Below, piece by piece: positions 7,137 through 24,007 of a stretch of 64,000 nt of DNA. The translations under genes and the position numbers were made by a program. The stretch's first letter is position 1, and each line of letters opens with the position of its first letter. The stretch is taken from the NCBI RefSeq assembly GCF_017599385.1, contig NZ_JAGFPK010000001.1, forward strand, positions 3,479,436 through 3,543,435, written 5' to 3'. This DNA comes from Ciceribacter sp. L1K22 (GTDB lineage Bacteria > Pseudomonadota > Alphaproteobacteria > Rhizobiales > Rhizobiaceae). The notes beneath the pieces are model-generated. The model did not search any database. It was not told the DNA's origin and saw only the letters and a list, made by a program, of their open reading frames with translations.

Positions 7137-7182
7137 AGTGTATTGCTGCGTTTTCGCTGTGCCATTCGTTCCGGAGAGAACG

Positions 7183-8220
7183 ATGGTTCAGCCCGTATAC
7201 GTATTCGATAGCAATAAATATTCAGAAGAAGAGCAGTTCTCTAGTTTTTGTAAAGAAATTTCACTAGGCGATATCTACAGTTTGGCCCGGGCTCCCGGTG
7301 ACCAGAAGAGGTTTCATGCGAATGTTGTCGGATATGATCTGGGAACTCTTAAGGTTGTCGTGAGCCAGTCCGAGGCTTTCCGATTTTCCCCGCAACCTCG
7401 CCTAGGTCGGCTGCCGGGCTTTGACTTCTGGCTTATACTTTTGCGCCTGACCGGGCATGCCACCATCGATGGTCCTCACGGACAGATGCGTTATGAGGGC
7501 AAGCGTCTCGAAATTCGTAAAGCCGGCGTGGCGCAATCCGGTGAGGTTTCAGTCAATACCACGGTCGGTGTTTATCTTCCACGGAACCAGTTCAGCGGCA
7601 TGGAAGCCGTTCTGGACCAGCTTGCCCACAACCCCAACCCTGATGACGGCCTCCATCCGTTGCTTTCGAACTACTTGTCCGCCCTGGTGACGGTTTTGCC
7701 TGATGCAGCGCAGAAGGAGATTTTCATGATAGCGGAGACCACGATCTCCATGATCCGCTCCTGCATTTCGGTGCGAGAGAGGGGGCAACTGCTTCAGACT
7801 CCTCTGACGGTTGCTCGGTTGGAGGTCGCCAAGAGGCTCATCTCGTCGAACCTCACATCATCCGTTGATCTCACTCCTGAAACTCTCAGCAGCAAGCTCA
7901 ATATGTCGCGGCGACAACTTTACAAGCTGTTTGAAAGCGAGGGCGGCGTGGAGCACTACGTTCGGTCCCGACGCCTTAACGCATGTTATGAGTCGATTAT
8001 CAAAGCCGGGCACCTCCGTCCGAGCAGTGCGATCGCGGAAGAATACGGATTTCACGATGCCCCGACATTCAGCCGGCAATTTCGTTTGCAGTTCGGGTGC
8101 AGCCCGAGCGAACTCAAGCAATTTTCAAAGGAGCGGCTGCAGGAAACCGCGTTCTCAAGATGGTTGAGGAAAGGCTCGAGCAGCGACCTCAGAGACACAG
8201 GTACCGATACCTTGGAGTAG
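7183..8220 (+). CDS. AraC-family transcriptional regulator (copy 1)
   Basis: This 345-residue regulator has a variable N-terminal sensor domain with a cupin-like middle (about residues 75-165) and a C-terminal AraC/XylS double helix-turn-helix (about residues 235-330). The latter contains SRRQLYKLFESEGG, the linker RSRRLNACYESI and the family signature YGFHDAPTFSRQFRLQFG. The start at 7183 has GGAGAG upstream; the longer TTG-started frame overlaps the palindrome at 7117-7136. It is convergent with, and 10 bases from, the end of the DUF11/barrel/transpeptidase operon, and is clearly paralogous to the AraC proteins at 22913-23983 and 24329-25351. A role in controlling that operon is inferred. 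Confidence 0.9.
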   Translation: MVQPVYVFDSNKYSEEEQFSSFCKEISLGDIYSLARAPGDQKRFHANVVGYDLGTLKVVVSQSEAFRFSPQPRLGRLPGFDFWLILLRLTGHATIDGPHGQMRYEGKRLEIRKAGVAQSGEVSVNTTVGVYLPRNQFSGMEAVLDQLAHNPNPDDGLHPLLSNYLSALVTVLPDAAQKEIFMIAETTISMIRSCISVRERGQLLQTPLTVARLEVAKRLISSNLTSSVDLTPETLSSKLNMSRRQLYKLFESEGGVEHYVRSRRLNACYESIIKAGHLRPSSAIAEEYGFHDAPTFSRQFRLQFGCSPSELKQFSKERLQETAFSRWLRKGSSSDLRDTGTDTLE

Positions 8221-8230
8221 GCCTTCGGGT

Positions 8231-8902
8231 TTATAAAACTATTATCGCCGCGCCTGGCTGGACCCGGGCGGCAAGATCGATGACATCCTGGTTGAGCATT
8301 CTGATACAGCCGGATGAGGCCTGCCGTCCTATGCTCCACCACTCCGGGGTACCATGAACACGATATAGCGTATCCTTACCGTTGCGGTGTATGTAGAGTG
8401 TGCGCGCTCCCAAAGGGTTTTCCGGGCCGCCGGGCATGCCGCTTCGGTAGCGTTCAAGTTCCGGAAGCCTCGCTCGCATTTCCATGGTGGGCGTCCATTT
8501 TGGCCAGGTCGCTATCCGGGCAATTTCACCATTGCCCGACCATCTGTAGCCATCCTTACCAATAGCTATGCCGTATCGTATCGCGGTACCGTCGCCGATA
8601 ACGAAATAAAGAAACCGCTCCGCAAGACTGACGAAGACAGTGCCTTCAGTGGCTCCGGTCAGGTCGATTACACGCCTGCGCCAAAATCTTGGGTCAAGCT
8701 TCCTGTATCGGACGGAAGGAACATTAAAACCATTATCTTCAAGCGCGACATAAAACCGTTCGGGATCTGCGGCTTGTATATCATGCGTGCCATTCGGCCG
8801 TGTGCCTCCTTGTGCAGCTTGCGACGAGGCGCCAAGGAGTAGCGCGGACAACAGTAGCGCCCGTCGATTCAGGACGACACCATTCGCCAATATCTTCTCC
8901 AT
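8231..8902 (-). CDS. L,D-transpeptidase (YkuD domain)
   Basis: This 223-residue exported protein has a signal sequence with a twin arginine (NRRALLLSALLLGASSQA). Its YkuD domain carries the active-site pattern VHGTPE ... SSGCIRM, with Cys as nucleophile; the SSGC variant in place of SHGC is common in rhizobial enzymes. The family forms 3-3 peptidoglycan crosslinks or attaches proteins to peptidoglycan in the periplasm. I chose the ATG at 8902, preceded by GGCGGAG; an alternative ATG at 8938 overlaps the barrel gene's stop (TGATG) and would also couple translation. It is the third gene of the DUF11 operon. Linking the barrel or the giant protein to the cell wall is a plausible inferred role. 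Confidence 0.88.
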   Translation of the reverse strand: MEKILANGVVLNRRALLLSALLLGASSQAAQGGTRPNGTHDIQAADPERFYVALEDNGFNVPSVRYRKLDPRFWRRRVIDLTGATEGTVFVSLAERFLYFVIGDGTAIRYGIAIGKDGYRWSGNGEIARIATWPKWTPTMEMRARLPELERYRSGMPGGPENPLGARTLYIHRNGKDTLYRVHGTPEWWSIGRQASSGCIRMLNQDVIDLAARVQPGAAIIVL

Positions 8903-8937
8903 TCCAGGCTCTCCGCCACCACGGTAAAGGCGCTTCA

Positions 8938-11900
8938 TCAGTATTTCCCAACGACGTTGAGGAAGACACCTTTGTCATCGAGTGTGAGGTCTCTGAGGTC
9001 GTCGGTGAAACGACCGAAATTGTATCCGACGCCCACCTTGAAGTCCTCGCCGACATGCCGATACAGGGCCACCAGGAGTCCGTAGTCGGTCGAGCTTGTC
9101 TCTGGAAGGCTGAGAACTCGTCCCTCCACCAGCGCATCCCAGCTTTTCACCAGATGAAGATCGAGACGGCCGGTACCCAGATATGCGGTAGAGACCGCCC
9201 ATTCGGATCCGTCCGATCCGTCGCGACGATCGCCAAAACGCAGTGCCTGCTTGGTCCCTATCGTCAGCCAAGGCATAAGGTCATAGGAAAGGTCGGCAGA
9301 CACAATGTGGCTGCGTTGCTCGACGGCCCCTTCGGACACAGCCGTTGACCCGAGATCCTTGAGATCGAGAAGATAGCTGTATTGAAACAGCGCATTAAGC
9401 TTATCATTGTCCACTGGACGGTACGCAAAGCCGAGCGATGTTTCCAGATAGTCCCTGTTTTGGACCGATGCGGACTCGCCATGTGCCTGGACGAGATCCA
9501 AGCCGGCAAGTAGGCGCCAGTCCTCGCTGGTTTTTACGGCAAAGTTTGAGGCAAGAACGTACGTCGTCGAGTCGCGCGTGTCGTCGGTCGAGTCGTCGTA
9601 TCTCGCCTCCCCCTTGACGCGGCCTTTCAAACCGTAATCCTCATCGTCGTAATTGACTGCAACGGAAACCGCCTTGCGATCGTAGTCCGAGCGTTCAAGC
9701 TTGGTGGAAGGATCGATGGTCTCGTCGCGGATCGATCCCGTCGTCAAGGCCGTATCAACGCTCCACAACGCGTCGGGCGTGTATTCGATGCCATAGGTCT
9801 GGGCCAGCGACTTTCGAAGCCCGAACATGTCGTAGGTGCTTTCGGCAAAGGCGGACGTAGAGTCCGAGATTTTCTTCCGAGACCCTGCGGTGATGACACC
9901 CCTGTCTGTTCCCGACAGCTCGTTCGTGCTCTCGATCGACGCGGCTCTGTCCGGATCGAGACGATAACCGACATAGTATTTGTCGTCGGCCGTCGGAGCA
10001 TATTCGGCACCGATTGCCCCTCCCACGCCGGTGGCGCCATGCGAGATTTCCGCGTTGGCTTCCACCTTCTCGGTCAGGCGCGTCTTTCCGCCAACGCCGA
10101 TCCGATCATTTCGACGTATATCGCCAGATTGCTGGACCGTTCCCTGAGCGAATCCGTATATCGATCTGTCGTCATTTATCTCGTAGTCGGCTCGCAGCCC
10201 GCCATCGATGCGCGAGCCGTTATAGCCGCTCTTTCCTGCCGCAAGGGCTGATGCGGACTGAAGCTCCGTACGTGCCGCGCCGACCGTGATCTTTGTGCTG
10301 TCGTTGAGCTGCACCGCCACATCGGCGGATGTCTCGACGCTTTTCTTGTTCTCGTCGGTCTTGAGTTGCTCATGCCCGATCGTCACTGAGGTGTTCTCGC
10401 CCAGTTCCAAAGCGGTGCCAACGCTCCAGCGCTCCAGTCCGACATCGGAATTGCCGCCGGCAATCGAAAAGCCGTTGCCTCTGTTCTCATAGCTGCCGTT
10501 AATGGTGCCCTTGAGATTTTCGATGCCTATGTCAGCCAGATCCAGCTGACCCTTGAGTTTCCAGGCGTTGGCGTCGTCGCTCACCGAGCCCAGTTTCTGC
10601 GTCGTTGAGGTGGATAAGCCGCCGTCGGTCGACGTATAACTTGAAGACGAAGCTCCTTTCGAACGCGCCACTTCGACGTCAAGCGAGGTGGTGTCGGAAT
10701 GACGAAGGCGCAAATCCGCGCTGACAACCTGGTGGTCGCTTGGGCCGGTATTGTCGGTCACTTCCGAGGCGCCGACGCGGACCTTGTCGTTGATCCAGCG
10801 TTCAACGCGGGCGCCGTGCGCATAGCCGTCGACATCTGAGGCAAGCGGAGTGTACTCGTATTGAACGATGACGTAGGCGTTGGTGCTGCCTTGCGAGGAA
10901 GACCGAACCGCCTCGCCAGGCGCACTCAAGACTGAAGCCGGCCTGCGGAGCAGAAGCAGGCCCTGGAAATAATCGAGTGTATAGTCCTCGTCCGCCACCA
11001 GTGTTTTCTCGGTGACAACCGCGCCCGTTACGACGCTCCGGTATTCGATCGAGACGGTCTCGGAACCTTCAGTTACATCCTGTCGCGAAAGAAAGTAGGA
11101 CGAGCCGCCTGTTGCCAGGAATTCATCGCGCCGCGCCAGGCTGTCCGGTTGTGCCGCATAGACGGCAGCAACGGTTCGCTTCTCGCCAAATGATGTCACA
11201 TCGTCTGGCGCATACTGAGCGGCTGCCCCGTAGAGAGAGCGTTCTGACTGAGCAAACTCCGTTCCCACGACGCGTGTCTTGAAATTTCCCCAAACGACAT
11301 GGCTGTCGCCCTTCTCGAGGCGGATATAGAGTTTCCCCCGTGTCGGCGCGTCTTCAACAGTGGTCGATGAGTCGCCGTAGACGGGGTAATACTGGTCGGG
11401 ATCAATTCTCCGCAGGATCTCGGAGCTCGACTGAGAGTTCAATCCTCGAAAGAGATTTTTCACGTCATCCTCGCCGGTGTCGGCTGATGCCGTAAGGAGA
11501 TACTCGCCCTTGATCTTGCCCTTCAGATAGAAGGCAAGCCGACCCTTGGAATAAACCCTGTCGTACTCCCCTTCGCGGGCGATTTCGATGCCGTCATCAC
11601 CCGATTTTCGGCCGACGGTCAGATCTGCAAGCGCAACATAGAACCATTCGTTCTGGGGTATATTGATTTCGCGTATGAAATTGAGGCCGCCTGATTTGGA
11701 GACGCCGGCGAGTGAAACGTCGACCTCGTGATCGCCGGGCGGCAGAATTCGCTGGACCACGAAGGACCGTTGTGCGTCGAGCGGGACCTGTGATCCGAGT
11801 GCGGTTATCGAATATCCTGGAGGAACATTCCGACCGTAGACAGTCACAGCCCCGCCATGAACGGGAATGTGCCGGACTGCGGTACGATCTTCGGCCACAC

Positions 11901-12675
11901 CAGGTGCCGGCGCCGGAGTCGCGCTGGCGGGCTCAAACACCGCATCGGTCCGCGACAGCATCAATGGTTCGGTTTCGTTGAAGCGTCCCTTGTCATCATA
12001 GACGCGCAAAACATAGTCGAAGTCCCGCGTCTCGCTCTCCGGCATGATCCACCGCGCGGTTCCGTTCGGTTCGATCGGCACCACGAACTGCGGCCTGAAG
12101 GTGGATCCTCTGTAGGAATCCCCGATTCTGATTTCTGCCTTGGTTATGAACGCCGGGTAGTTCGAGTAGGCTTGGAAAACGACGTCTTCGCCGGCCTGAT
12201 AGGTTCTTCGAACCGGACTCGTGGACACGTTGAGCATTGTCTTCACATCGAGTCCGTCGAATTTGACCTGGATGTCGACCGCGCTCAGATCCAAATCCGC
12301 CTTGCGCTGCCGATCCGCCATTTTGACAGCTGACTTGTCGCCGAGGGGCGCAGAAACGACCTGCATGCTTTCATCGACCACCTGCCCATCCACGCTGATC
12401 GAAAAAGGGACTGCGTCCCCTTGCGCAGCGCCTTTTTCGGTGTTCTCTCCCACCACCAGCGTTCGGCTTGATCCGTCGTCCAGCATTTTTCCGCGGATGA
12501 CGGACGAACATTCCTCATTGACGCACCCGTCAATGTCGAAGCCGCTTTGTGGGAATGCCTGATGTGAAACCCCTATGGAAAGCAGCAAAGCGGTGCCGGC
12601 TTTCAGTGTGAGGTGCCTTGATTTCCTGTCGGGGGACTGGTCCCACGTGCGCACGCTATCGAACAAGGTTGTCAT
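8938..12675 (-). CDS. Large outer-membrane beta-barrel protein
   Basis: A signal sequence (near residues 20-40, ending SHQAFPQ) begins this 1245-residue protein. Residues about 110-280 hold Ig-like beta sandwiches (for example RTYQAGEDVVFQAYSNYPAF), and a PEGA-like stretch follows (GRNVPPGYSITALG). From about 350 to the end, amphipathic beta strands alternate and the final residues are FLNVVGKY, an aromatic C-terminus typical of Bam-dependent barrels. 'VADEDYTLDYFQGLLLL' near residue 575 is a motif I associate with barrels encoded beside DUF11 proteins. ATG 12675 has GGAGGT upstream and overlaps the stop of the DUF11 gene (ATGA). It may export, anchor or assemble the giant repeat protein; the exact function is unknown. 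Confidence 0.78.
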   Translation of the reverse strand: MTTLFDSVRTWDQSPDRKSRHLTLKAGTALLLSIGVSHQAFPQSGFDIDGCVNEECSSVIRGKMLDDGSSRTLVVGENTEKGAAQGDAVPFSISVDGQVVDESMQVVSAPLGDKSAVKMADRQRKADLDLSAVDIQVKFDGLDVKTMLNVSTSPVRRTYQAGEDVVFQAYSNYPAFITKAEIRIGDSYRGSTFRPQFVVPIEPNGTARWIMPESETRDFDYVLRVYDDKGRFNETEPLMLSRTDAVFEPASATPAPAPGVAEDRTAVRHIPVHGGAVTVYGRNVPPGYSITALGSQVPLDAQRSFVVQRILPPGDHEVDVSLAGVSKSGGLNFIREINIPQNEWFYVALADLTVGRKSGDDGIEIAREGEYDRVYSKGRLAFYLKGKIKGEYLLTASADTGEDDVKNLFRGLNSQSSSEILRRIDPDQYYPVYGDSSTTVEDAPTRGKLYIRLEKGDSHVVWGNFKTRVVGTEFAQSERSLYGAAAQYAPDDVTSFGEKRTVAAVYAAQPDSLARRDEFLATGGSSYFLSRQDVTEGSETVSIEYRSVVTGAVVTEKTLVADEDYTLDYFQGLLLLRRPASVLSAPGEAVRSSSQGSTNAYVIVQYEYTPLASDVDGYAHGARVERWINDKVRVGASEVTDNTGPSDHQVVSADLRLRHSDTTSLDVEVARSKGASSSSYTSTDGGLSTSTTQKLGSVSDDANAWKLKGQLDLADIGIENLKGTINGSYENRGNGFSIAGGNSDVGLERWSVGTALELGENTSVTIGHEQLKTDENKKSVETSADVAVQLNDSTKITVGAARTELQSASALAAGKSGYNGSRIDGGLRADYEINDDRSIYGFAQGTVQQSGDIRRNDRIGVGGKTRLTEKVEANAEISHGATGVGGAIGAEYAPTADDKYYVGYRLDPDRAASIESTNELSGTDRGVITAGSRKKISDSTSAFAESTYDMFGLRKSLAQTYGIEYTPDALWSVDTALTTGSIRDETIDPSTKLERSDYDRKAVSVAVNYDDEDYGLKGRVKGEARYDDSTDDTRDSTTYVLASNFAVKTSEDWRLLAGLDLVQAHGESASVQNRDYLETSLGFAYRPVDNDKLNALFQYSYLLDLKDLGSTAVSEGAVEQRSHIVSADLSYDLMPWLTIGTKQALRFGDRRDGSDGSEWAVSTAYLGTGRLDLHLVKSWDALVEGRVLSLPETSSTDYGLLVALYRHVGEDFKVGVGYNFGRFTDDLRDLTLDDKGVFLNVVGKY

Positions 12676-15600
12676 TGGTTTACCTCCACGCGCTTCTCGA
12701 TTTCGAGGCGATAGGTCCCGCCATAATCGGCCCACAGCTGGGCGATGGTTTTCTGCATTTCGGTCAACCGCCTTGCAGCCAGCTGCGGCTCGGCCTTGCT
12801 GTCCACGTAGGAGAGGCGAATGAGGGAGTAGTCCTGCTTGAGCACCTCAAGGAGGCGGATGATCTGGTCGTACCATTGCGCCTTCAACCGAAGACTTCCG
12901 GCGTCGAAGGCATCGTCCGTGAGGTCGATACGGACCAGTCTTCCGATAGAGGCGCCGAAGTTCATCTTCGACATGTTTCCGGCCGTGAGCCGCATGACCC
13001 GGGGATTCTCGGTCGTCAGGCGGTAGCCCGTCGGAAGCGTTCTCGTGTCGAGCTTGAGAATGAAGTTCGAGCCGATGCGTTGATCCGGCAGAGCGGCGCA
13101 GGGAAGACTGTAGCGCCCATGTTCGTCCGTCGTGATGAGAACACCATTGACGGTTGCCAAACGGACCCCGGGCAATCCGGGCTCGCCATCATCCGGATAG
13201 CCGTTCCGGTTGACGTCATCGAACACGCGACCGATGACAGTCGAGCAGTCGAACATCGCCTCGGCAACCACGACGACCGTCGCTGTGCCCGGGGGTGTTG
13301 GAATGTCCTTTACCGTGGCGTAGTTCGTGTATCTGCCGGGGACGACAGAGCTGAGAACCACGAGCTTCAACTCGATCTCGATCGCGCTATCCGGAGGGAT
13401 ATCGAGGTCGGCGAACTCGATGTCCCTGCCCTTCACGCTTGGCGTCACCGCAACGCCCTCCACCTTCGCTGATCCTTCGATGAAGCGGAACCCGGCGGGA
13501 ATGCGATCGATCACGGTGACCTGCGCCGGAATGGATAGCGAATTGTTTGCAACCATGATCCGGTAGGGCACCGTGTCACCCCTGCGTACCTCCTTCACAT
13601 CCGCCACCTTGGTGACGGTGATGTCGGTGGAGGTTGCCGGAGGCGCAAGCGGCGTTACGACACAATACGCGGGAGGATTTTCCGGATCGCAGGGTGGCGA
13701 GGTAAAATCCGGGTCTTCGGGTGTTTCGAATGTGAGATTGGTGACCTCTGTCAGACCTTCGGGCAACTCATCCTTCAGTGTCACGGCGACATGTCGGGTG
13801 ATTTTCTTGCCGGGAGGCAGAGTATCGATCGTCCAGGTGGTATAGCCGGTTACGGGATCGTAGGTGCCATTCTCCCGTGGTTCGACCTTCTTGACCGCTT
13901 CGAGGTCCACGAACTGGTCTGTTACGGAGTAGTCCTCAATCGCCGTACCTCCGGTGTTGATCAGTGTCACTTCGTAGACCAGTGTCTCTCCCGGCTCACC
14001 GAGGCCTTCCCTCGTGCCACCGATTTCCTCGATCAGCGTCTTGGTGGGAGAGACCTGTCCTTCGGTCGGATGATCGACGTCGCAGACCAGGATTGCAGTC
14101 GGGATGCAGTCCAGGACGATGTTGCTGACACGCTTCAATCCCTGGGGCAGCGGAGCGACCAACGTGATGTCCACGGTCCGCGTGACGGTCTCGCCGATTT
14201 CAAGGCTGTCGATCACCCATGTCGTTCGACCTGTCGTGGGATTGTACGTCCCATTATCGGAGGCAACCGCCGAGGCGACGGCGTCCGCCGGTTTGAACAC
14301 CTCGAAAACCTCGACGTCATTGGCATCGCGACCGCCATTGTTGGTGACGGTGATCTCGTAGCGCAGGGTTTCCCCGGCTTGAGCAATGCCATTGTTCTCA
14401 ATACTCTCATTGATGAGCTTCTTCGATCTGTTGATCGATGACGGCGTTGGGAGAACCACCCGGCAAGGAGCGCCGGTTGCTGTGTTCGTGACGGTGCAGT
14501 CCTTCACCAGCCGGTTCGTCACCTGCGTGGTACCTGCGGGCAGTGGGTCCTTGAGCGTGAACTTCACCGTATAGTTGACCGGCGTGCCCCGTGCGATTGT
14601 CTGGTCTCGCCAGATCACCCTTCCGGTTGCAGGGTCCCATTCCCCACCCTTGTCGGCCTCCACTAGCTCCGCTGTCGCCGGTGGTTCGAAGAAGTCTTCG
14701 ATGTCATAGCCCATGACAGTCGAGCCGCCCGTATTGGTGACTGTCACGCGGTAGGTGAGCATTTCACCCGGCTCCGCGATACGGTTGTTCGGCACATAGC
14801 TTTCGGCCACCAGCGACTTGACCTGATGGATATCGGATTCGGTCGGCGTGACGACCTCACAGGAGCCGGCGAAAAGCTCTTTGCACTCAAGAACCCGGTT
14901 CCTGACGGAGGCCAGGCTTGTGGGCAAGGGATCATTGAGCTTGATATCGACCGTGCGTGTTACCTCTCCGCCGAGCTTTCCGATCGAGGGAATGATCCAT
15001 TCGATGGTCACGGTATTCGCGCCGGGATCGGTCGTTACCGTGCCCCCATCAGCATCAATGTCGGCGACCGAGACCGCAGTGAGGGGGGTGAATTCGTCCC
15101 TGAGGACGTAGTTCTCTGCATCCGCATTGCCGATGTTGCGCGCGGTGATCTCGTAGCGCAGGGTTTCGCCGGCCTCGGCAACACCGGTAATGTCGCCCCC
15201 ATCTTCAACTTTGAGCACCTTGGCATGCTTGACATTCGGAGCCCTGGGCAAATCCGGGCCGCACGTCCGCCCCGGAATGACGACGCAATTCAGGACTTCA
15301 TTCTTTACGTTCAGAATATCGTCCGGCAGCGGGTCCTTCAGCTTGATCGCGACCCGCAATTTGATGGTGCGGGTGCCGGTCGAAGGTACGGTCAGATTGG
15401 TCCATGTAACGATGCCGGTGTTTTCGTCATAGGAGTGCGTGTTCCCATCGAGGACCGTCACTTCATCGATCGCGTCCAGGGGTGTGAACTGATCTTGAAT
15501 CGACACGCCCGTTGCATCGGATCCACCTAAATTCATGACCGTGATTTCATAGGTCAGGGTTTCACCGGGCTCGGCATAGGCATCGTTGTCTTCGGCGCCG

Positions 15601-18600
15601 CCCGACTGATCCACCAGTTCCTTGGCCTGTTGCAGCAGCGGTCCGGTTGGGGTGTCCACCTCGCAGGACTCGCCATCGATCGGCAGGCAATCGAGCAGTC
15701 TGTTCGTCACGCCCTGGAGCCCGTCGGGGAGCGGGTCGGCAAAACGGTACTTGATCGTGACTTCCTGGGGCGTTCCCCCAAGGGCGAGCGGCACAAGTGG
15801 CCCAATGGTTCTCGTTGCAGTGTTCGTTGCGGCGTTCCAGCTCCAGTCGGCCGGCGTAGGGTCACCGTCGAGAAGGCCGGGAACGCCCACCGGATCGAGC
15901 TGGTCCTTGACAACAACCGTATTGGCGACGGCCCCACCAACGTTGATCACCCTGATGGTGTAGGTAAGTTCCTCTCCCGGCTGGAGCTTCCGGTCGTTGT
16001 TGATGCTGTCGATGGTCAGGACCTTGGACTGCCTGATAATCGGCTCCGGGGGGATAACGGGGTCGCAGATCTTGCCGACGATGATGTTTTCGCAGGTCAA
16101 GATATTGGTCAGCTCGGTCAGCCCCTCGGGCAATGGATCGATCAAGGTGATGTCGAGCGTTCTGGTGACAGTTGTTCCTTTTGGCAGCGACGCTATGGTC
16201 CATGTGGTCGTGCCATTGACATAGCTTCCGCCGTCCGAGGCGACCGCACTATCAACCACCTCCGGATTGCTGAAGGTGTCCACGACCTGATAGTCGCTGA
16301 GGTCGGTGCCACCGGCATTGGTGACGGTGATCGTATACCTCAGAGTCTCGCCGCCTTCGGCATAGGCATCGTTGTCTTCAGCGCCACCGCTCTGGTCGGT
16401 CAGTTCCTTGGACTTCTGCACATCGGCGGCGGTCGGTGTCACGACGGTGCAGGAAAAGCCCGGGATGACTTCGACACACGGGGTGACGGCATTCGTCACT
16501 TCTTCGGTATTTGGCGGCAGGCTTGGCAGGAGTGTGACGGTGATATCCCAGGTGACCGGCTCGTTTGGCTTCAGTTCCGGGATTGTCCATGTGGCGGTTC
16601 CGGTAGCGGCATCCGCCGAGCCCTTGCCGGCTTCCGTCGACATGGTCGCAATGGCGTTTACCGGGAGAAACTGGTCTGTGAGCGTGTGGTTGAACGCCGA
16701 CTGCCCCCCTACGTTCTCTACGGTGATACGGTAGGTCAGCGTTTCTCCGGGCTCTGCGATATTCGGCGCAGAACCGCCCTGCTCGGTGAGAAGGATCTTG
16801 GCCGTTCTGATGCGCGGTGGCGTAGGCGTTTTAATGTCGCACGGTTCGCCGGTCGCGGCATTGGTGATGATACAATTGTTCGGGAGAAAGTTGCGCACCC
16901 ACTCCACGCCCACCGGCAGCGGATTGGCAAGAGTGACCGTCACTGTATAGGTCTTGCTGCTACCAGCCGGAATGTCCTGGCCGGTCCACAGGCTCGTGCC
17001 AGTCGCCGCGTTGTAGCTGGAATTGAGCGGCGGGTCGAGAACGACGCTTTGAACGGCAGTCTGAGGGCTGGAAAGCCCTTCCGCGGAAAAGACATCCCGG
17101 ACGGTGTAGCCGAAAGCATCGGTGCCGCCATTGTTGGTGGCAACGACAGTGTACATAAGCGTTTCACCGGGTTCCGCCACTCCCGTCAATCCTGAAGGTG
17201 CAACCGAACTTTCGGTCGTCAGTTGTTTTGCAGTATTGACGGCGGAGGGAGTGGACGTGACGACCACGCACGGTTCCTCGGTTGCGACGTTTGTCGGCAC
17301 GCAGTCCTTGATGACGCTGTTCCTGACTTCTGCGAGCCCCGGGGTCAGCGGGTTGGTGAGGGTTATGGCGACGGTTCGTTTCACGATGCCGGGCTGGGTC
17401 TCGCTGGTTGCGGCCGGAATGGTGACTGCGGGCCATGTGGTGGTGATCTGGTTGGCCGCGACGGCAGAGGTGCCTGCATCGCTTGCCACGACGCCGGAGA
17501 CGATGTCGACGGTATCGGCGGGCTCGAAGACATCCTGAATGACATAGTTGGTCATCGGCGTGCCGCCGGTATTGGTCACGGTGACCTCGTATTCGAGGGT
17601 CTCGCCGGGTTCTGCTGTATTGGCGAGCGTGCCACCGGTCTCCGGGAGCAGCCTTTTCGACTGGCTGACCTTCGCGGCGGTCGGCAGGATGACGCCGCAG
17701 GGCGCGAGTGTGACGGGGTCGGTCACGACGCAGTCGGTGGTGACGCGGTTGATGACCTGGGTCCATGGCTGGTCGAAGACCGGCTTGAGTGTCACCTCGA
17801 TCGGGACGGTGATGCTGCCATTGGCGGGAATGGAGAGGTTCGTCCAGGTGGTGACGCCATTGCCCTGGTAGGTGCCGCCGGGAATGGTGGTGCTTCCGAC
17901 AACGGTTGACGGCGCATTGACCGAAGCGATGATCCCGGCGGGCGTGAATGTGTCCGTCAGGGTGTAGCCGCTTCTGGCCGTGCCGCCGCTATTGGTGATG
18001 GTCAGCGCATAGGTGATGGTCTCGCCAGGCTCGGCAACACCCAGCATGCCGGCAGGCTCGACAAGGCTTTCCACCGTCTTCACCTTGCTCGTCGTGATCT
18101 TCGACGCCGTGGGCGTCTTCACCACGCACGGTTCCCCGGTAGCGACGTTTGTCGGCACGCAGTCCTTGATGACGCTGTTCCTGACTTCTGCGAGCCCCGG
18201 GGTCAGCGGGTTGGTGAGGGTTATGGCGACGGTTCGTTTCACGATGCCGGGCTGGGTCTCGCTGGTTGCGGCCGGAATGGTGACTGCGGGCCATGTGGTG
18301 GTGATCTGGTTGGCCGCGACGGCAGAGGTGCCTGCATCGCTTGCCACGACGCCGGAGACGATGTCGACGGTATCGGCGGGCTCGAAGACATCCTGAATGA
18401 CATAGTTGGTCATCGGCGTGCCGCCGGTATTGGTCACGGTGACCTCGTATTCGAGGGTCTCGCCGGGTTCTGCTGTATTGGCGAGCGTGCCACCGGTCTC
18501 CGGGAGCAGCCTTTTCGACTGGCTGACCTTCGCGGCGGTCGGCAGGATGACGCCGCAGGGCGCGAGTGTGACGGGGTCGGTCACGACGCAGTCGGTGGTG

Positions 18601-21600
18601 ACGCGGTTGATGACCTGGGTCCATGGCTGGTCGAAGACCGGCTTGAGTGTCACCTCGATCGGGACGGTGATGCTGCCATTGGCGGGAATGGAGAGGTTCG
18701 TCCAGGTGGTGACGCCATTGCCCTGGTAGGTGCCGCCGGGAATGGTGGTGCTTCCGACAACGGTTGACGGCGCATTGACCGAAGCGATGATCCCGGCGGG
18801 CGTGAATGTGTCCGTCAGGGTGTAGCCGCTTCTGGCCGTGCCGCCGCTATTGGTGATGGTCAGCGCATAGGTGATGGTCTCGCCAGGCTCGGCAACACCC
18901 AGCATGCCGGCAGGCTCGACAAGGCTTTCCACCGTCTTCACCTTGCTCGTCGTGATCTTCGACGCCGTGGGCGTCTTCACCACGCAATTGGCAGGGTCCT
19001 CGACGGCGCAGGCAGGCAGGCTGTTGATCACTTCGAGGAGACTCGAAGGCAGGTCCGCGACGAGCTTCAATCTGACCGTCCGCGTGATCACCCCGCCGGC
19101 ACCCAGATTGCTTATCGGCCATGTGGTGGTGACAGCGGTCGGCGTGATCACGGACGTCCCGCCATTACTGACATTCACCACTTCGGCCACCGCACTGCCC
19201 GGCGTGAATTCGTCCACCACGTCACCGGACCAGGGCAGCCCGCCGGTGTTGGTGATGGTGACGGTGTAGGTCAGTGTTTTGCCGGCTTCGGCAATATTGG
19301 GCAGCGACTCATCCGCAAGGACTTTCTTCAGCTTTATGCGGGCCTGCGTCGGCGTTTTGACCTGGCAGGGATAGCCGGTACCGGCGTCTTCGATCACGCA
19401 TTCGCTGTTGGTGACGAGGTTGATGATCTCGGCGATATTGTCGGGGATAGGGTTCTTGAGCGTGACGAACAGCTTTCCGACGAACTCTGCCCCGGGCGCG
19501 AGGTCGACGGCGGGCCACTGCGAAACATAGGAGGTCGTGTCTGGCTGGATATCGACGCCCGTATCAGGCGAGGTGATCGACTGGATGGCCTGAAGCGGCG
19601 AGGTTTCGTCCGTCAGTACGAAGCCGGTACGGGTCGTGCCGCCATTGTTCTTCACGACGATCCGGTACTCAAGCGTTTCGCCATCGGAAGCGATGCCGTC
19701 AGCATTGTTTACGATCGTCTTGATGATCGAGAGCTTCGCCGGCGTCGGTGTATAGACGCAATGGTCGGTATCGGTCCCAACCGGCAGGCAGTCCGGCTCC
19801 GTGTCTCCGGTCTCGAAGACCTTGTTCAGCACTTCGCTGACGCCATCGGGAATCGGGTTCGCAACCCGGGCCTGGAGCGTCACTTCGAGGTAGCCGGGAT
19901 CTTCGATTCTGGGGTTGGGATAGCCTTCCTCCCCTTCACCCGGCTTACCGGCCGGCACGTTGAGACCGCTGATGGCAATGACCTGACGGCCTGCATCGGT
20001 GGTGATCGATATCTGTCCTGCAGGAATGACCACCCCGTCGGCCCTGGCGCTTCCCGCCACATAGGTGAGGTTCGGATCGAGGATATCGGTTAGCTTGTAG
20101 TTTGTGTCGGGCGCGCCACCGATATTCTTCAACGAAATCTTGTAAGTCAGGATCTCGCCCGCAACAGCGATGTCATCCCTGGCGATGCTTTCCGCCGACA
20201 GTATCTTCTTGAAGGAGATGTTCGGCACGGTAATTATCTCATCAGGGCACTTGATGTCCGGGGGAAAGCAGGGGAAGTCGCCGGCGATGTTGCCGACCTC
20301 GCCGATGCCGATGATCGTGCCACTGTCGATCTCGAGCGGATCGACGAGTGTGATATTGATGAAGCGATCGACAGCCTCACCCGCGGCGATCGACGGGATC
20401 GTCCACACGGTCTCTCCCGTGTAGGCCCCAGTGTCGTCCAGTATGTTGGTTCCGGGGGGACTATTATTCGGGAACGTGATCGACGCGATCGCTTCCTTCG
20501 GAAAGAAGAAGTCGCGCAGGACATAGTCGGTGATTGCCGAACCGCCGATGTTATCGACGGTCAGCTTGTAGCGCAATGTCTCGCCCGGCTCCGCCAGCGG
20601 AGAGTTACCGTCGCCGCCCAGGAAGACCTTGGGGGTCAGGACCTGCAAAGTCGGTGTGATCACGCAAAGGGCGCCGTTACGGTCTGCGCCCCCCATCTCG
20701 CAGTCGGGTTCCGGGTTTTCGGTCTTGTGGACGGCGTTGATGACTTCCTTGATGCCGATCAGATTGTCGGCGACCCGCGCATCGACATCGATGGTCACGG
20801 TGCCGGGCGTGTTGGGGTCGGGTGTTCCCGGGATCGTCAGGTTCTGCCAGCGGATCACGGTTTTCTGAGTGACCGGGTCATATGTCGGCGCATTGGACGG
20901 GGTAAGGGTCGACGAGGAATAGGTCAGGTTGTCGCCGAGAACATCGGTCAGATTGTAACCTGTGAAGTTAGCGGTCCCGGTATTCGACAGCGTGATCCGG
21001 TATGTCAGGAATTCGCCTTCCTCGGCAATCGCCGGCGTCTGCGGCTTCGTCTGCCCGAAGAGCTGCTTGCGGATGGTGATGGGAGGAAGGTCATCATCCG
21101 TGCTCGTGTTATTGCTGTCGTCGCTGTCGCCGAAATCCTCGGTCGTCGGCTCGGCACTGACCGTGTTGATGAGATTGCCCTTGTAGTCAGGGGGAACGGG
21201 CAGATTCAGGGTGAAGATCACCGAGGTTGGAGAGATCCCGCTGGCGTCGACGTTCACCGGCAGGGAAACCATGTCGTCTATCGGGCCGGATCTGGGGTCT
21301 GCGCTTGTCGGCGTTGCCTTGGTGCTGCCGGGCGGGCACTCCGGCATGAGCGTGGCGGACGCACCAAGACCCGCTTTGCAGGACCAGGTGGCGGCTGCTT
21401 TTTGCGATGCGGTGAAATTCGCCGGCAGCAGATCCTGCACCCGAACCGCATTGGCGCCGAAGGGCCCGGTGTTTTTCACCTCGATCTCGTAGGTCGTGGT
21501 TTGCCCCGGGACATATTGGTCGGTGGGAAGATCGAGAGGCCCCTGCGCCGGCGTATTGGTCTTGGTGACGCTGACGTCGACGGGGAAGGTGATGGCCGCA

Positions 21601-22610
21601 TTGATATCTGACGCGCCGTCGTTGACATTTGAAGCGGCAGTATTCCCCAGTTTGAAGGCGATGCCGGTGTCAGGATCGAACTTGTAGAAACCCGCGCCGC
21701 CGTTCTCCGAGCCGTAGATGCCCAGGCAGGTGCTGTACATTGCGCCGAATGAACCCTGGGGTTGTGTTCCGCTTGAGCCCCATATCGAGCTCGATACGGT
21801 ATAATTTCTGACCGTAGGCCATTGAGAGATATCGAAATAGATGAGCGTTGGAGGATTTGTTCTTCGGACGGAGTAGAGCTTGCCATCCTGGGCGAAGGCA
21901 AAATCCTGGAAGATAAGCCCGGGAGTGTTCCCCACGGGGGTCTCGGTGTTGCCTTTCACTTCCAGGATCGGGGTCGAGGATTCAATGCTGAGCGTTCCTA
22001 CAAAAGTGCCCGCCTTGAGTTGCTCCAGCTTCGACTGAAAGTTGGTGATTCTTCTCAACCTTTGGGCGCCGTTGGCCTCGGCAAGGTAGTAGTCACCGTT
22101 CGCATCGAACGCCCCCGAAATCATATTCACGTTCGGAAGGGCACCGATAGGATCTATACCTGTGCCGTTCTGGACATTGGCATCGATGGCGGTCACAACT
22201 CCAGTTCCTGGGTCGATTTCGAGCAGCTTTCCGGTGTTCGCATCCGTGCCGGAAGAACTTTTGGCATTGCGGATGGCGTAAAGCTTGCCGAGAGCCGTAT
22301 GGTAGGCAAGCGCGTTGTAGGTAACAGTGGACTGGCTACCTATATTGCCGAAGACAACCGGGTTGTTGTTCGTGTTTGCCTGCTGAAGCGTGACGTATTC
22401 GTTGACATTGTCATTGAGGCTCTGCGACAGGAAGAATTTGTTCGAGGTCGCGGTTCCGTTGCAGACCACCTGTGCTTTCGCCGCCTGTTTCTCCGGCTGC
22501 AGAATGGGCGGTGCCACAAGCACGGCGAGCGAGACCGAAGTGGAGAGCGCCAGTGTGGCGAATACAGTTCTCAGCTTTTCGGCGTATCGCGCAGTCATAT
22601 TGGCAGTCAT
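12672..22610 (-). CDS. Giant DUF11-repeat secreted protein
   Basis: This protein has 3312 residues. A signal peptide (about 1-46, ending AAKAQ) is followed by a domain (about 50-340) with 'GKLYAIRNAKSS' and 'GKLYSVRRTN' blades resembling the DUF6923 propeller. I count about twenty DUF11 Ig-like repeats (about 345-3115), each opening with a pattern like EPGETLTYEITVTNTGG. An SdrD B/prealbumin-like domain (about 3118-3220; GRVFDDVNRNGYPDDGEPG) and a C-terminal 85 residues resembling a degenerate OmpA peptidoglycan-binding domain end it. Most linkers carry one Cys pair. Domains 7-8 and 9-10 are nearly identical by recent duplication. It is first in the operon, 302 bases from an AraC gene. Surface fibre or adhesin is the likely role; the ligand is unknown. 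Confidence 0.85.
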   Translation of the reverse strand: MTANMTARYAEKLRTVFATLALSTSVSLAVLVAPPILQPEKQAAKAQVVCNGTATSNKFFLSQSLNDNVNEYVTLQQANTNNNPVVFGNIGSQSTVTYNALAYHTALGKLYAIRNAKSSSGTDANTGKLLEIDPGTGVVTAIDANVQNGTGIDPIGALPNVNMISGAFDANGDYYLAEANGAQRLRRITNFQSKLEQLKAGTFVGTLSIESSTPILEVKGNTETPVGNTPGLIFQDFAFAQDGKLYSVRRTNPPTLIYFDISQWPTVRNYTVSSSIWGSSGTQPQGSFGAMYSTCLGIYGSENGGAGFYKFDPDTGIAFKLGNTAASNVNDGASDINAAITFPVDVSVTKTNTPAQGPLDLPTDQYVPGQTTTYEIEVKNTGPFGANAVRVQDLLPANFTASQKAAATWSCKAGLGASATLMPECPPGSTKATPTSADPRSGPIDDMVSLPVNVDASGISPTSVIFTLNLPVPPDYKGNLINTVSAEPTTEDFGDSDDSNNTSTDDDLPPITIRKQLFGQTKPQTPAIAEEGEFLTYRITLSNTGTANFTGYNLTDVLGDNLTYSSSTLTPSNAPTYDPVTQKTVIRWQNLTIPGTPDPNTPGTVTIDVDARVADNLIGIKEVINAVHKTENPEPDCEMGGADRNGALCVITPTLQVLTPKVFLGGDGNSPLAEPGETLRYKLTVDNIGGSAITDYVLRDFFFPKEAIASITFPNNSPPGTNILDDTGAYTGETVWTIPSIAAGEAVDRFINITLVDPLEIDSGTIIGIGEVGNIAGDFPCFPPDIKCPDEIITVPNISFKKILSAESIARDDIAVAGEILTYKISLKNIGGAPDTNYKLTDILDPNLTYVAGSARADGVVIPAGQISITTDAGRQVIAISGLNVPAGKPGEGEEGYPNPRIEDPGYLEVTLQARVANPIPDGVSEVLNKVFETGDTEPDCLPVGTDTDHCVYTPTPAKLSIIKTIVNNADGIASDGETLEYRIVVKNNGGTTRTGFVLTDETSPLQAIQSITSPDTGVDIQPDTTSYVSQWPAVDLAPGAEFVGKLFVTLKNPIPDNIAEIINLVTNSECVIEDAGTGYPCQVKTPTQARIKLKKVLADESLPNIAEAGKTLTYTVTITNTGGLPWSGDVVDEFTPGSAVAEVVNVSNGGTSVITPTAVTTTWPISNLGAGGVITRTVRLKLVADLPSSLLEVINSLPACAVEDPANCVVKTPTASKITTSKVKTVESLVEPAGMLGVAEPGETITYALTITNSGGTARSGYTLTDTFTPAGIIASVNAPSTVVGSTTIPGGTYQGNGVTTWTNLSIPANGSITVPIEVTLKPVFDQPWTQVINRVTTDCVVTDPVTLAPCGVILPTAAKVSQSKRLLPETGGTLANTAEPGETLEYEVTVTNTGGTPMTNYVIQDVFEPADTVDIVSGVVASDAGTSAVAANQITTTWPAVTIPAATSETQPGIVKRTVAITLTNPLTPGLAEVRNSVIKDCVPTNVATGEPCVVKTPTASKITTSKVKTVESLVEPAGMLGVAEPGETITYALTITNSGGTARSGYTLTDTFTPAGIIASVNAPSTVVGSTTIPGGTYQGNGVTTWTNLSIPANGSITVPIEVTLKPVFDQPWTQVINRVTTDCVVTDPVTLAPCGVILPTAAKVSQSKRLLPETGGTLANTAEPGETLEYEVTVTNTGGTPMTNYVIQDVFEPADTVDIVSGVVASDAGTSAVAANQITTTWPAVTIPAATSETQPGIVKRTVAITLTNPLTPGLAEVRNSVIKDCVPTNVATEEPCVVVTSTPSAVNTAKQLTTESSVAPSGLTGVAEPGETLMYTVVATNNGGTDAFGYTVRDVFSAEGLSSPQTAVQSVVLDPPLNSSYNAATGTSLWTGQDIPAGSSKTYTVTVTLANPLPVGVEWVRNFLPNNCIITNAATGEPCDIKTPTPPRIRTAKILLTEQGGSAPNIAEPGETLTYRITVENVGGQSAFNHTLTDQFLPVNAIATMSTEAGKGSADAATGTATWTIPELKPNEPVTWDITVTLLPSLPPNTEEVTNAVTPCVEVIPGFSCTVVTPTAADVQKSKELTDQSGGAEDNDAYAEGGETLRYTITVTNAGGTDLSDYQVVDTFSNPEVVDSAVASDGGSYVNGTTTWTIASLPKGTTVTRTLDITLIDPLPEGLTELTNILTCENIIVGKICDPVIPPEPIIRQSKVLTIDSINNDRKLQPGEELTYTIRVINVGGAVANTVVVKDQLDPVGVPGLLDGDPTPADWSWNAATNTATRTIGPLVPLALGGTPQEVTIKYRFADPLPDGLQGVTNRLLDCLPIDGESCEVDTPTGPLLQQAKELVDQSGGAEDNDAYAEPGETLTYEITVMNLGGSDATGVSIQDQFTPLDAIDEVTVLDGNTHSYDENTGIVTWTNLTVPSTGTRTIKLRVAIKLKDPLPDDILNVKNEVLNCVVIPGRTCGPDLPRAPNVKHAKVLKVEDGGDITGVAEAGETLRYEITARNIGNADAENYVLRDEFTPLTAVSVADIDADGGTVTTDPGANTVTIEWIIPSIGKLGGEVTRTVDIKLNDPLPTSLASVRNRVLECKELFAGSCEVVTPTESDIHQVKSLVAESYVPNNRIAEPGEMLTYRVTVTNTGGSTVMGYDIEDFFEPPATAELVEADKGGEWDPATGRVIWRDQTIARGTPVNYTVKFTLKDPLPAGTTQVTNRLVKDCTVTNTATGAPCRVVLPTPSSINRSKKLINESIENNGIAQAGETLRYEITVTNNGGRDANDVEVFEVFKPADAVASAVASDNGTYNPTTGRTTWVIDSLEIGETVTRTVDITLVAPLPQGLKRVSNIVLDCIPTAILVCDVDHPTEGQVSPTKTLIEEIGGTREGLGEPGETLVYEVTLINTGGTAIEDYSVTDQFVDLEAVKKVEPRENGTYDPVTGYTTWTIDTLPPGKKITRHVAVTLKDELPEGLTEVTNLTFETPEDPDFTSPPCDPENPPAYCVVTPLAPPATSTDITVTKVADVKEVRRGDTVPYRIMVANNSLSIPAQVTVIDRIPAGFRFIEGSAKVEGVAVTPSVKGRDIEFADLDIPPDSAIEIELKLVVLSSVVPGRYTNYATVKDIPTPPGTATVVVVAEAMFDCSTVIGRVFDDVNRNGYPDDGEPGLPGVRLATVNGVLITTDEHGRYSLPCAALPDQRIGSNFILKLDTRTLPTGYRLTTENPRVMRLTAGNMSKMNFGASIGRLVRIDLTDDAFDAGSLRLKAQWYDQIIRLLEVLKQDYSLIRLSYVDSKAEPQLAARRLTEMQKTIAQLWADYGGTYRLEIEKRVEVNQ
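17284..18128. repeat. Tandem duplication inside the DUF11 gene, promoter-distal copy
   Basis: These 845 bases recur at 18142-18986 with an offset of exactly 858 bases (286 codons), encoding two DUF11 domains. I found no differences over the parts compared; identity stops sharply at both ends (gcgacg at 17284 and cacgca at 18128). Frame is preserved. Confidence 0.9.
18142..18986. repeat. Tandem duplication inside the DUF11 gene, promoter-proximal copy
   Basis: This is the second copy of the 845-base unit at 17284-18128. Neighbouring DUF11 domains in the same gene are much more diverged, so this pair is a recent in-frame expansion or a recently homogenised pair. Confidence 0.9.
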
Positions 22611-22834: not shown

Positions 22835-22912
22835 GACGGATTTGAGGCGGCTCGTCAGGATGTCGCTTGCAAAGAAAAACCGGGTTTCTGGAACGCTTTC
22901 TTGTCTTCGGGC

Positions 22913-23983
22913 TTAATCCCGGAACTGCATCAGCCATTCACGCAAAGTCGCCGGTCTTTGTTGCAGCGGCCGGTATCCATAGTGCCGAAAATCCCTGGCT
23001 TCGGTCGGGCTGTATCCGAACTCCGACAGGAAATTCCGGCTGAACTGCGGGGCGTTCGTGAAGCCATAGTCGTAGGCGATGGTGCTGATGAGGCGGTGAT
23101 CGGCGGCATCGACGATGGCGTCGTGGCACGCGATCAGGCGACGGCGCCGGATGTATGTGGCAACGCCTCCCAGCTTTTCGAAGACGTAGTAGAGTTGTCG
23201 ACGAGAGATGCCGATCGCCTTGCAGACCTCGCCCGGCCCAAGATCCGCCGATCGCAGGTTTGCATGGATATAGCGCCTTGCCCTCTCAAGAAGGCTTGTC
23301 GCTATTGGGGCAGCGGCTTCCTCCAGCGTTTCGCGGCTAAGCTCCAGCGCAGCGCGCAACAGGGTCGTGACCGAGTTCACGATGACAGGCACATCCTCCA
23401 GCGTTGCGCTTTCCATTCGTTCGTCGAGAGAAAACAGGAATTCGCGAATGATCCCCTGCATGCTGCCGGTTAGCGGACGATTGTTCGCCGCATCAAGGCA
23501 TGAGGCGAGCGAGGCGAAGTTGTCGCGGCTGAGGAACAGCATGATCGAGCGACTTCTGCTGGTCGAAGCCGAAAACGGAGCGGCCAACGATCTGATGTCG
23601 AGCGTTCCGGCCGTGCTCTCCAGCTGCGAACCATCATATCGGGTCACCTCAGTGCCCGACCGCCGGAGCGTCAGAACCCAGTGGTCGATGTCCGATCCCT
23701 GGATCAGGCTCGCGCTTCTTTGATACCGGAGGGCACCCGTGCTGAGAGACACATGATGGAGACGACCCAGATCATAGGCTCTCGCGCACGCCTTGAATTC
23801 GGGTCGCGGCGTTCTTTCGATTTCCACGACAGGCGACAGTAACTCGGCCCAGTAGTCGATAGGCGTCACGCCCGATCGAGCAACGGTGCTGACGAAATCC
23901 TTCCGCAGAAACTCCGACCTCGGTGACGCGTCCGCTTTCGCGGTCTTGTAGCTGTCACTCATCAAGCGCAGATATTTGACCAT
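22913..23983 (-). CDS. AraC-family transcriptional regulator (copy 2)
   Basis: This 356-residue regulator has an N-terminal sensor region (about 30-200) and a C-terminal AraC/XylS domain (about 245-335) with SRRQLYYVFEKLGG, RRRRLIACHDAIV and YGFTNAPQFSRNFLSEFG. The ATG at 23983 is preferred; a GTG two codons upstream is also in frame and the ribosome-binding site is weak in either case. It lies upstream of and in the same direction as the giant DUF11 gene, 302 bases away, and is the best candidate for its activator. It is paralogous to the AraC proteins at 7183 and 24329. Confidence 0.9.
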   Translation of the reverse strand: MVKYLRLMSDSYKTAKADASPRSEFLRKDFVSTVARSGVTPIDYWAELLSPVVEIERTPRPEFKACARAYDLGRLHHVSLSTGALRYQRSASLIQGSDIDHWVLTLRRSGTEVTRYDGSQLESTAGTLDIRSLAAPFSASTSRSRSIMLFLSRDNFASLASCLDAANNRPLTGSMQGIIREFLFSLDERMESATLEDVPVIVNSVTTLLRAALELSRETLEEAAAPIATSLLERARRYIHANLRSADLGPGEVCKAIGISRRQLYYVFEKLGGVATYIRRRRLIACHDAIVDAADHRLISTIAYDYGFTNAPQFSRNFLSEFGYSPTEARDFRHYGYRPLQQRPATLREWLMQFRD

Positions 23984-24007
23984 GGACACGCCTGAGATAA
24001 ATTTTGC

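What the first reader, a model, noticed from the sequence alone, without database searches (positions are those of the whole stretch)
8231..22610. Operon of a 3312-residue DUF11 protein, an outer-membrane barrel and an L,D-transpeptidase
Three minus-strand genes overlap or abut (ATGA at 12672-12675; TGATG at 8936-8940). They encode a secreted fibre-like protein with about twenty Ig-like repeats and an OmpA-like end, a 1245-residue barrel and a periplasmic crosslinking enzyme. DUF11 proteins with a neighbouring barrel are known, but their function is not established. Adding an L,D-transpeptidase suggests a self-contained system that builds a surface fibre and anchors its base to peptidoglycan.
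Basis: partly seen in the sequence, partly recalled or inferred. Interest (0 to 1): 0.78.

Follow-up and report, generated by a model that had tools for sequence, protein, structure and literature searches.

The report
Crosslinked surface fibre with wall enzyme
A rhizobium-like bacterium carries three linked genes that look like a very long, chemically stapled surface fibre, the outer-membrane protein it is built on, and an enzyme that may fasten its base to the cell wall; the first two recur widely, the third was found with them only in one small group.

Summary
The three overlapping minus-strand genes are real. Fibre and barrel form a widespread pair: a DUF11-type partner lies beside or is fused to the barrel in 84 of 96 loci with enough upstream DNA, with the same 4-base ATGA overlap in 36 of 82 separate pairs. 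Single-chain DUF11-barrel proteins exist elsewhere. DUF11 now has a described function: CLIPPER, an Ig-like domain with an internal Lys-Asn isopeptide bond (PMC12617251); the residue triad is kept in 16 of 18 repeats here. The L,D-transpeptidase (LDT) is not a general part: it follows 0 of 87 pairs outside one barrel clade, but all 5 clade loci with visible downstream DNA, the window included. The 'OmpA-like end' looks like an OmpA domain that lost its wall-binding loop; relatives outside the class keep a true OmpA domain. Best reading: a fibrillar adhesin split from its outer-membrane base, which lost a non-covalent wall anchor and in one clade gained a transpeptidase. Barrel size, surface exposure and the enzyme's substrate are untested; structure prediction never ran.

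The parts
12672..22610 (-). 3312-aa DUF11/CLIPPER fibre protein (start ATG 22610; signal-peptide-like N-terminus by eye)
21609..22430 (-). N-terminal DUF6923 region (residues 61-334), presumed variable tip
   Evidence: Pfam PF21959 8e-16; N-terminal 480 aa found by phmmer in 4 of 104 loci against 85 of 104 for the C-terminal 252 aa
13713..21074 (-). stalk of 18 DUF11/CLIPPER repeats (residues 513-2966); Lys-Asp-Asn triad and Cys pair in 16 of 18 each
18142..18986 (-). copy 1 of an exact 845-base internal duplication (offset 858 bases)
17284..18128 (-). copy 2 of the exact 845-base internal duplication
13104..13229 (-). SdrD_B-like stretch before the tail (residues 3128-3169)
   Evidence: PF17210 E 1.2e-4, below Pfam's own cut-off
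12675..13004 (-). degenerate OmpA-like C-terminal tail without the PG-binding loop (residues 3203-3312)
8938..12675 (-). 1245-aa presumed outer-membrane barrel protein with an N-terminal region that looks Ig-like; starts on the ATGA overlap
8941..11538 (-). presumed conserved core and barrel (residues 400-1265 of the long ORF), aromatic C-terminal residue
   Evidence: no structure model
8231..8938 (-). YkuD-type L,D-transpeptidase (alternative start ATG 8902), HGTPEWW...SSGCIRM motif
7114..8220 (+). AraC-type regulator, convergent, 10 bases from the LDT stop
22913..23989 (-). AraC-type regulator upstream of the fibre gene (32% identical to the one at 7114)
24329..25351 (-). third AraC-type regulator

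Best explanation
The operon makes a fibrillar adhesin in two pieces plus a wall enzyme. All three proteins are exported. The barrel protein sits in the outer membrane. The 3312-aa protein's conserved C-terminal base (SdrD_B-like stretch and degenerate OmpA-like tail) docks on the N-terminal region of the barrel protein, as inferred from relatives in which the two are one chain. Its stalk of 18 CLIPPER repeats, most of them predicted to be stapled by a Lys-Asn isopeptide bond and a Cys pair, stands out from the cell and carries a variable N-terminal tip. Versions in other classes can hold the base to peptidoglycan through a true OmpA domain; that domain is gone here, and a transpeptidase of one subfamily has been added, most likely to fix or reinforce the base on the wall. 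Shown: genes, overlaps, conserved bond-forming residues, pairing, fusions, absence of OmpA, clade-restricted LDT. Inferred: export, surface exposure, docking, bond formation, the enzyme's substrate.
For: Partner beside or fused to the barrel in 84 of 96 loci; ATGA overlap in 36 of 82 separate pairs, ATG within 60 bases in 37 more; single chains L050 and L195-L198; C-terminal 252 aa found in 85 of 104 loci, N-terminal 480 aa in 4. Triad (Asp or Glu, Asn or Asp accepted) in 16 of 18 window repeats, 17 of 18 in L083, 21 of 22 in L089; Cys pair in 16, 17 and 17; the same residues, and a Cys pair after the Asn, are reported for the solved CLIPPER domain (PMC12617251, passages). OmpA domain in the barrel protein of L031, L159, L162, L199 and in single chains L196, L198, but in none of the other 194 of 197 fibre and barrel ORFs scanned (the 3 matches, L031, L159, L162, were in the training set). 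Specialised LDTs tether OMPs to PG in many Gram-negatives (review PMC12729407, abstract passage).
Against: The barrel clade has support 99 in FastTree but 83 in IQ-TREE; four of its five confirmed loci are one GTDB genus, so shared descent explains part of the co-occurrence. Within the 19-row LDT set the linked ones are interleaved with 12 of unknown context (5 label changes), and the program warned of long branches among them. Nearly all alphaproteobacterial pairs examined have neither OmpA domain nor linked LDT. LDT-tethered barrels are linked through an N-terminal Ala or Gly (PMC12274547, passages); by eye the mature N-termini here mostly do not start so. The fibre ends in Gln, not an Lpp-like Lys. 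In Root274 a PAS-protein gene sits between barrel and LDT. The solved CLIPPER chain 9IFR matches the repeat profile only at E 0.8. No structure could be predicted.
Confidence: 0.45

Rival explanations
1. The fibre-barrel pair works as above, but the LDT edits peptidoglycan (3-3 crosslinks, or local change of mesh) so that the large assembly can pass or stand in the wall; it tethers nothing.
For: A toxin-release system that depends on LDT wall editing is described in the review PMC12729407 (passages). No tether signature seen on either partner. The YkuD domain fills residues 100-234 of 235, so no further domain follows it.
Against: 87 of 87 pairs outside the clade do without an LDT behind the barrel. 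I recognised no wall hydrolase among the ten neighbours read in part but scanned none of those ten with profiles except one AraC gene.
Confidence: 0.25
2. The LDT is a hitchhiker: one more of many wall LDTs that landed behind the pair in an ancestor and is merely co-transcribed.
For: The genome has 16 YkuD matches; the clade is small and mostly one genus; 283 of 297 order genomes have relatives of the enzyme. LDT genes also lie near two pairs outside the clade, L145 and L149, about what 16 LDTs per 4.7 Mb would give by chance (my rough estimate, not computed in a call).
Against: Kept behind barrels only 53-67% identical to the window's, including a genome of another GTDB family (G237); the linked LDTs cluster (5 changes against a shuffled mean of 6.9, 0 of 500 shuffles as low).
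Confidence: 0.2
3. The barrel is a nutrient transporter (as its database name 'TonB-dependent receptor' says) and the DUF11 protein is its periplasmic or surface accessory.
For: Name in NCBI for many relatives; ExbB-ExbD-TonB genes follow the pair in Phyllobacterium sp. 628.
Against: No plug or receptor-barrel Pfam match at E<=1 and no credible PDB relative by profile (best E 0.015, a phage protein); ExbB/D/TonB genes beside 1 of the 9 annotated plasmid loci read; an extended 18-Ig stalk should not fit the periplasm (inference).
Confidence: 0.1

Closest known systems
CLIPPER (DUF11) fibrillar adhesins, e.g. Acinetobacter silvestris B9T28_05395 (PMC12617251, PDB 9IFR)
   Same: Tandem DUF11 stalk, Lys-Asp-Asn triad, Cys pair after the Asn, N-terminal tip, OmpA-like C-terminal end.
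   Different: There the OmpA-like domain is called the anchor; here it is degenerate and the protein has a separate, co-encoded barrel partner and, in one clade, an LDT. Direct sequence match to 9IFR is weak (E 0.8).
Type V secretion (autotransporters, two-partner secretion)
   Same: N-terminal fibre with C-terminal barrel in one chain or in two adjacent genes.
   Different: No autotransporter or two-partner translocator Pfam match in the barrel; much longer barrel protein; the conserved end of the fibre is its C-terminus.
LDT-tethered beta-barrel OMPs of alphaproteobacteria and Lpp-type tethers (PMC12274547, PMC12729407)
   Same: A YkuD LDT and an outer-membrane barrel.
   Different: There the LDTs are not encoded with one client (recalled); the N-terminal Ala/Gly signature is not general here.
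Grappling hook protein A of Aureispira (PDB 9flp)
   Same: Giant surface protein with DUF11-like stretches; best PDB hit of the repeat profile, E 0.0014.
   Different: Weak match over 44 profile positions; different phylum and secretion route (recalled).

Membership tests
CLIPPER-stalk fibrillar adhesin | tandem DUF11 domains in a long protein | tested here: met
   20 Pfam stretches at E<=1, 18 full repeats
CLIPPER-stalk fibrillar adhesin | Lys-Asp-Asn isopeptide triad | tested here: met
   16 of 18 repeats; profile built on these repeats
CLIPPER-stalk fibrillar adhesin | bond really formed | not testable with these tools
   needs mass spectrometry or a crystal
CLIPPER-stalk fibrillar adhesin | adhesive N-terminal domain | tested here: inconclusive
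   DUF6923 only, function unknown
OmpA-type PG-binding anchor | PF00691 match and PG-binding loop | tested here: not met
   0 of 17 C-tails at E<=1; loop deleted in the profile alignment
TonB-dependent receptor | plug and receptor barrel domains | tested here: not met
   no such Pfam or NCBIfam match
Type V secretion | known translocator domain | tested here: not met
   best Pfam YadA_anchor E 0.51
Type V secretion | fibre and barrel in one chain or adjacent genes | tested here: met
YkuD L,D-transpeptidase | YkuD domain with His and Cys motif | tested here: met
   PF03734 6e-21; HGTPEWW and SSGCIRM read in the sequence
LDT-tethered OMP | mature N-terminal Ala or Gly (Ala-Asp in Rhizobiales, recalled) | tested here: inconclusive
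   judged by eye without a signal-peptide program; likely Ala start in L084, Ala-Asp in L090, unclear in the window, otherwise mostly Gln or Glu

The most novel reading that the evidence does not exclude
A split fibrillar adhesin in which a stalk stapled by isopeptide and disulfide bonds is held by, or threaded through, an unusually wide outer-membrane barrel, and in which one clade replaced the lost non-covalent OmpA wall anchor by a dedicated transpeptidase that welds the fibre base to peptidoglycan: a fibre covalently continuous from tip to cell wall in a Gram-negative.
Probability: 0.15. Interest if true: 0.8.

Novelty: new variant of a known kind. Interest (0 to 1): 0.52.

Why it matters
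It gives CLIPPER fibrillar adhesins of alphaproteobacteria a co-encoded outer-membrane partner that databases mostly name 'TonB-dependent receptor' or 'hypothetical', and a series of architectures (one chain with or without OmpA; two genes with OmpA; two genes without; two genes plus LDT) that makes the question how a Gram-negative fibre is held on the wall directly testable. I found no description of the pair in the open-access searches made; subscription papers are mostly not held.

Tried and rejected
Rejected: the trio as a general Rhizobiales system. TonB receptor. Type 11 secretion: in the 12 passages shown of PMC12282271 nearly every 'duf11' hit is DUF1194, and DUF11 is named only as a domain found with it. 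DUF3233 autotransporter (PMC3206015): the 'duf11' hit was DUF1196. Lpp-like C-terminal Lys: many fibre tails end in Lys or Gln, but the ATGA overlap forces a last codon ending in A, so this says little; the window ends in Gln. 'CLIPPER repeats are special to the LDT clade': dropped, because the profile was made from the window and partners outside the clade are rich in the sister family CLIPPER_2/DUF7507. A strand count from amphipathic 9-mers: dropped, the density is the same in both halves. Led nowhere: PDB profile search with the barrel; promoter/terminator scan (promoter-like 11 against 6.4, sd 2.4; terminator-like 14 against 16.9, sd 3.8); first genome-contig scan with one sequence.

Rows dropped before counts: five loci that repeat another record (L033, L035, L036, L039, L042), from 109 to 104. 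Of 12 loci without a partner by my rule, L121 does have one (overlapping open frames), L051, L107 and L157 are broken or short, and eight are orphan barrels. 16 of 109 loci were left out of the 102-row tree, which also holds two copies of the R. halophytocola barrel. One more barrel and LDT share a contig length (9393; P0013, P0243): the sources differ, P0013 lies outside the clade and P0243 outside the 19-row LDT set; I did not count it, but if it is one contig it is a case against clade restriction. The LDT rows are the 120 best hits to the window's enzyme, R. halophytocola's and 28 background rows, so the tree is centred on it.
Full report
OBSERVATION. The three genes are present as described. 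The fibre ORF is 12672-22610(-), 3312 aa. The barrel starts on the ATGA overlap at 12675 behind a GGAGG and has 1245 aa; the LDT ORF is 8231-8938(-). The window's own LDT as held in the protein database begins at the ATG at 8902 (P0124), which has a GGAG in front, so the TGATG overlap is possible but not certain. In the window's genome all 18 DUF11 matches lie in this gene, the barrel is single copy, and the LDT is one of 16 YkuD matches.

THE FIBRE. Pfam at E up to 1 gives DUF11 with 20 stretches, DUF6923 near the N-terminus and a sub-threshold SdrD_B stretch near the C-terminus. My repeat profile finds 18 full repeats. In 16 distinct repeats, five columns are invariant (Gly, Tyr, Asn, Gly, Asn) and a Lys, a Glu, a Leu, an Asp and two Cys are nearly so. 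The survey PMC12617251 (passages read) renamed DUF11 to CLIPPER and solved one domain with a Lys-Asn isopeptide bond, a presumed catalytic Asp and a Cys-Cys disulfide after the Asn. The window has the triad (Asp or Glu and Asn or Asp accepted) in 16 of 18 repeats and the Cys pair in 16 of 18; the nearest relatives show 17 of 18 and 17 of 18 (L083), 21 of 22 and 17 of 22 (L089). The profile is built from the window, so I do not claim that other partners lack such bonds: four partners outside the clade score 1169, 1277, 579 and 325 bits for the sister domain DUF7507/CLIPPER_2, against 215 in the window, 197 in L083 and 213 in L089. By sequence the repeats match the solved chain 9IFR only at E 0.8; the best PDB hit is the Aureispira grappling hook protein, E 0.0014. 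An exact 845-base duplication lies in the stalk.

BASE AND TIP. The fibre's C-terminal 252 aa are found in 85 of 104 loci with a median BLAST identity of 47%; its N-terminal 480 aa in 4 of 104 by phmmer and 10 by BLAST at about 29% (many loci are cut before the N-terminus, so this is a lower bound). A conserved base with a variable tip is what an adhesin with a fixed partner would show. The tail (last 110 aa) has no PF00691 match in 17 of 17 members scanned. A profile comparison with six true OmpA domains aligns it (probability 45%, E 2e-4 for one pair) with a gap at the GHTDNQ...N..L wall-binding loop. So it probably descends from an OmpA-type domain but should not bind peptidoglycan in the usual way.

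THE BARREL. No Pfam match better than E 0.51, no NCBIfam match, no credible PDB relative. Of 2306 homologues among the 8000 candidates scored, the 120 listed cover 78-99% of the query at 47-100% identity; where named they are mostly 'TonB-dependent receptor' or 'hypothetical protein', yet plug and receptor domains are not found. The family is patchy: 4 of 63 genomes of the window's genus, 19 of 297 of the order, and 57 of 398 of the phylum with an alignment as query, each with the window's genome included; many of the last match only a core stretch inside larger chains. The number of strands is unknown; the wide-barrel idea rests on protein length alone.

PAIR AND FUSIONS. In 104 loci (nine plasmid regions, of 25 plasmid records hit; 20 genome regions; 80 named loci, which is capped at the best 80 of 493; five repeats removed), a DUF11-type partner lies directly upstream or is fused in 84 of 96 loci with at least 1.5 kb of upstream DNA. 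In 82 separate pairs, 36 have the exact ATGA overlap, 37 an ATG within 60 bases of the stop, 9 neither. L050 is one open frame from DUF11/DUF7507 through SdrD_B and the degenerate OmpA-like stretch into the barrel. I took five further regions: four larger chains (L195-L198) hold DUF11 and the barrel core in one frame, two of them with a true OmpA domain between (L196, L198); L195 is of the window's class, the others are not. In L031 (Eleftheria), L159 (Syntrophaceae), L162 (Methylotenera) and L199 a true OmpA domain is at the front of the barrel protein. A profile of these domains finds only L031, L159 and L162 among 197 fibre and barrel ORFs, all three in its training set. So the alphaproteobacterial pairs examined, the window's among them, lack the canonical wall-binding domain.

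THE TRANSPEPTIDASE. An LDT on the same strand within 3 kb follows 3 of the 90 loci with at least 1.5 kb of downstream DNA: L083 (Rhizobium sp. Root274, after a 548-aa PAS protein), L084 (R. halophytocola, 4 bases), L089 (Rhodobacterales bacterium BW5, overlapping open frames). L090 (Rhizobium sp. PDO1-076, short contig) has it too. With the window that is five loci. All five lie in one barrel clade (13 of 102 rows, FastTree support 99; 12 of 38 rows, IQ-TREE SH-aLRT 83). In the remaining clade locus, L087, the contig ends behind the barrel. Two further clade members, P0080 and P0100, share a contig length with an LDT (18519 and 417972), which is suggestive only; a third such match (9393, P0013/P0243) lies outside the clade and is told under Tried and rejected. 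The 87 other loci have no LDT behind the barrel. Of 104 loci two more hold an LDT elsewhere: L145, about 1 kb in front of the fibre gene and of another type (129 bits against 308-326), and L149, 9 kb behind. Coordinates show that L083, L084 and L090 are three of the four barrel carriers (the window's genome is the fourth) among 63 genomes of the window's genus, so all four carriers have the LDT; BW5 (G237) is another family. Independent events are therefore few.

REGULATORS. Three AraC-type genes flank the operon. Relatives of the first two lie beside L083 (two), L087 (two), L134 and L135 (one each, weaker): 4 of 109 loci at E 1e-8. The S. meliloti pair has an annotated AraC gene behind the barrel that did not match.

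HOW IT PROBABLY WORKS. See Best explanation. A topological point argues for caution: in the single chains the order is DUF11, OmpA, barrel, so the OmpA part is periplasmic and the DUF11 part must come back out through the outer membrane, or stay inside. For chains with one DUF11 stretch staying inside is possible; for an 18-repeat stalk I consider the surface far more likely, but this is not shown. LDT tethering of beta-barrels to peptidoglycan is reported in some alpha- and gammaproteobacteria (PMC12274547, passages; review PMC12729407, passages); the Ala-Asp signature in Rhizobiales is recalled from the primary paper, which I did not read. By eye, mature N-termini in this family mostly do not show it. 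I therefore rate tethering as the likeliest but not a dominant reading, with wall editing and hitch-hiking as rivals.

VERDICT. Known kinds: CLIPPER-stalk fibrillar adhesin and YkuD LDT. New as far as my open-access searches reach: the conserved fibre-barrel pair, its architecture series with loss of the OmpA anchor, and a clade-restricted LDT.

Noticed in passing
L096, L097, L101, L102, L103, L104, L113, L117: Orphan barrel paralogues without a DUF11 neighbour in Nitratireductor and Chelativorans; in the five inspected (L096, L101, L103, L113, L117) a gene that reads like a biotin carboxylase lies divergently upstream (recognised by eye). Chelativorans xinjiangense also has a complete pair (L122).
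   Followed up: partly
window 17284-18986: Exact 845-base direct duplication inside the fibre gene, offset 858 bases (two repeats), pointing to recent stalk lengthening or recombination.
   Followed up: partly
L145 100-657: An LDT of another type lies about 1 kb in front of the fibre gene of Pelagibacterium montanilacus, outside the LDT clade.
   Followed up: partly
L151 5803-9956 (same record as L035): Pelagibacterium xiamenense has two DUF11-type partner genes in tandem before one barrel.
   Followed up: no
L083 13670-15313: A 548-aa PAS-domain protein frame stands between barrel and LDT in Rhizobium sp. Root274.
   Followed up: partly
L026 17326-19627: ExbB, ExbD and TonB genes follow the pair in Phyllobacterium sp. 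628.
   Followed up: no
window 22001-26000 and 6001-9000: G+C falls to 53-57% at both edges of the operon, below most of the window; with the patchy distribution this would fit horizontal gain.
   Followed up: no
window 25573-31469 and 131-4795: Upstream neighbours read like malonate use and a TRAP transporter; downstream ones like an ABC sugar transporter and an arabinofuranosidase-like enzyme (by eye).
   Followed up: no
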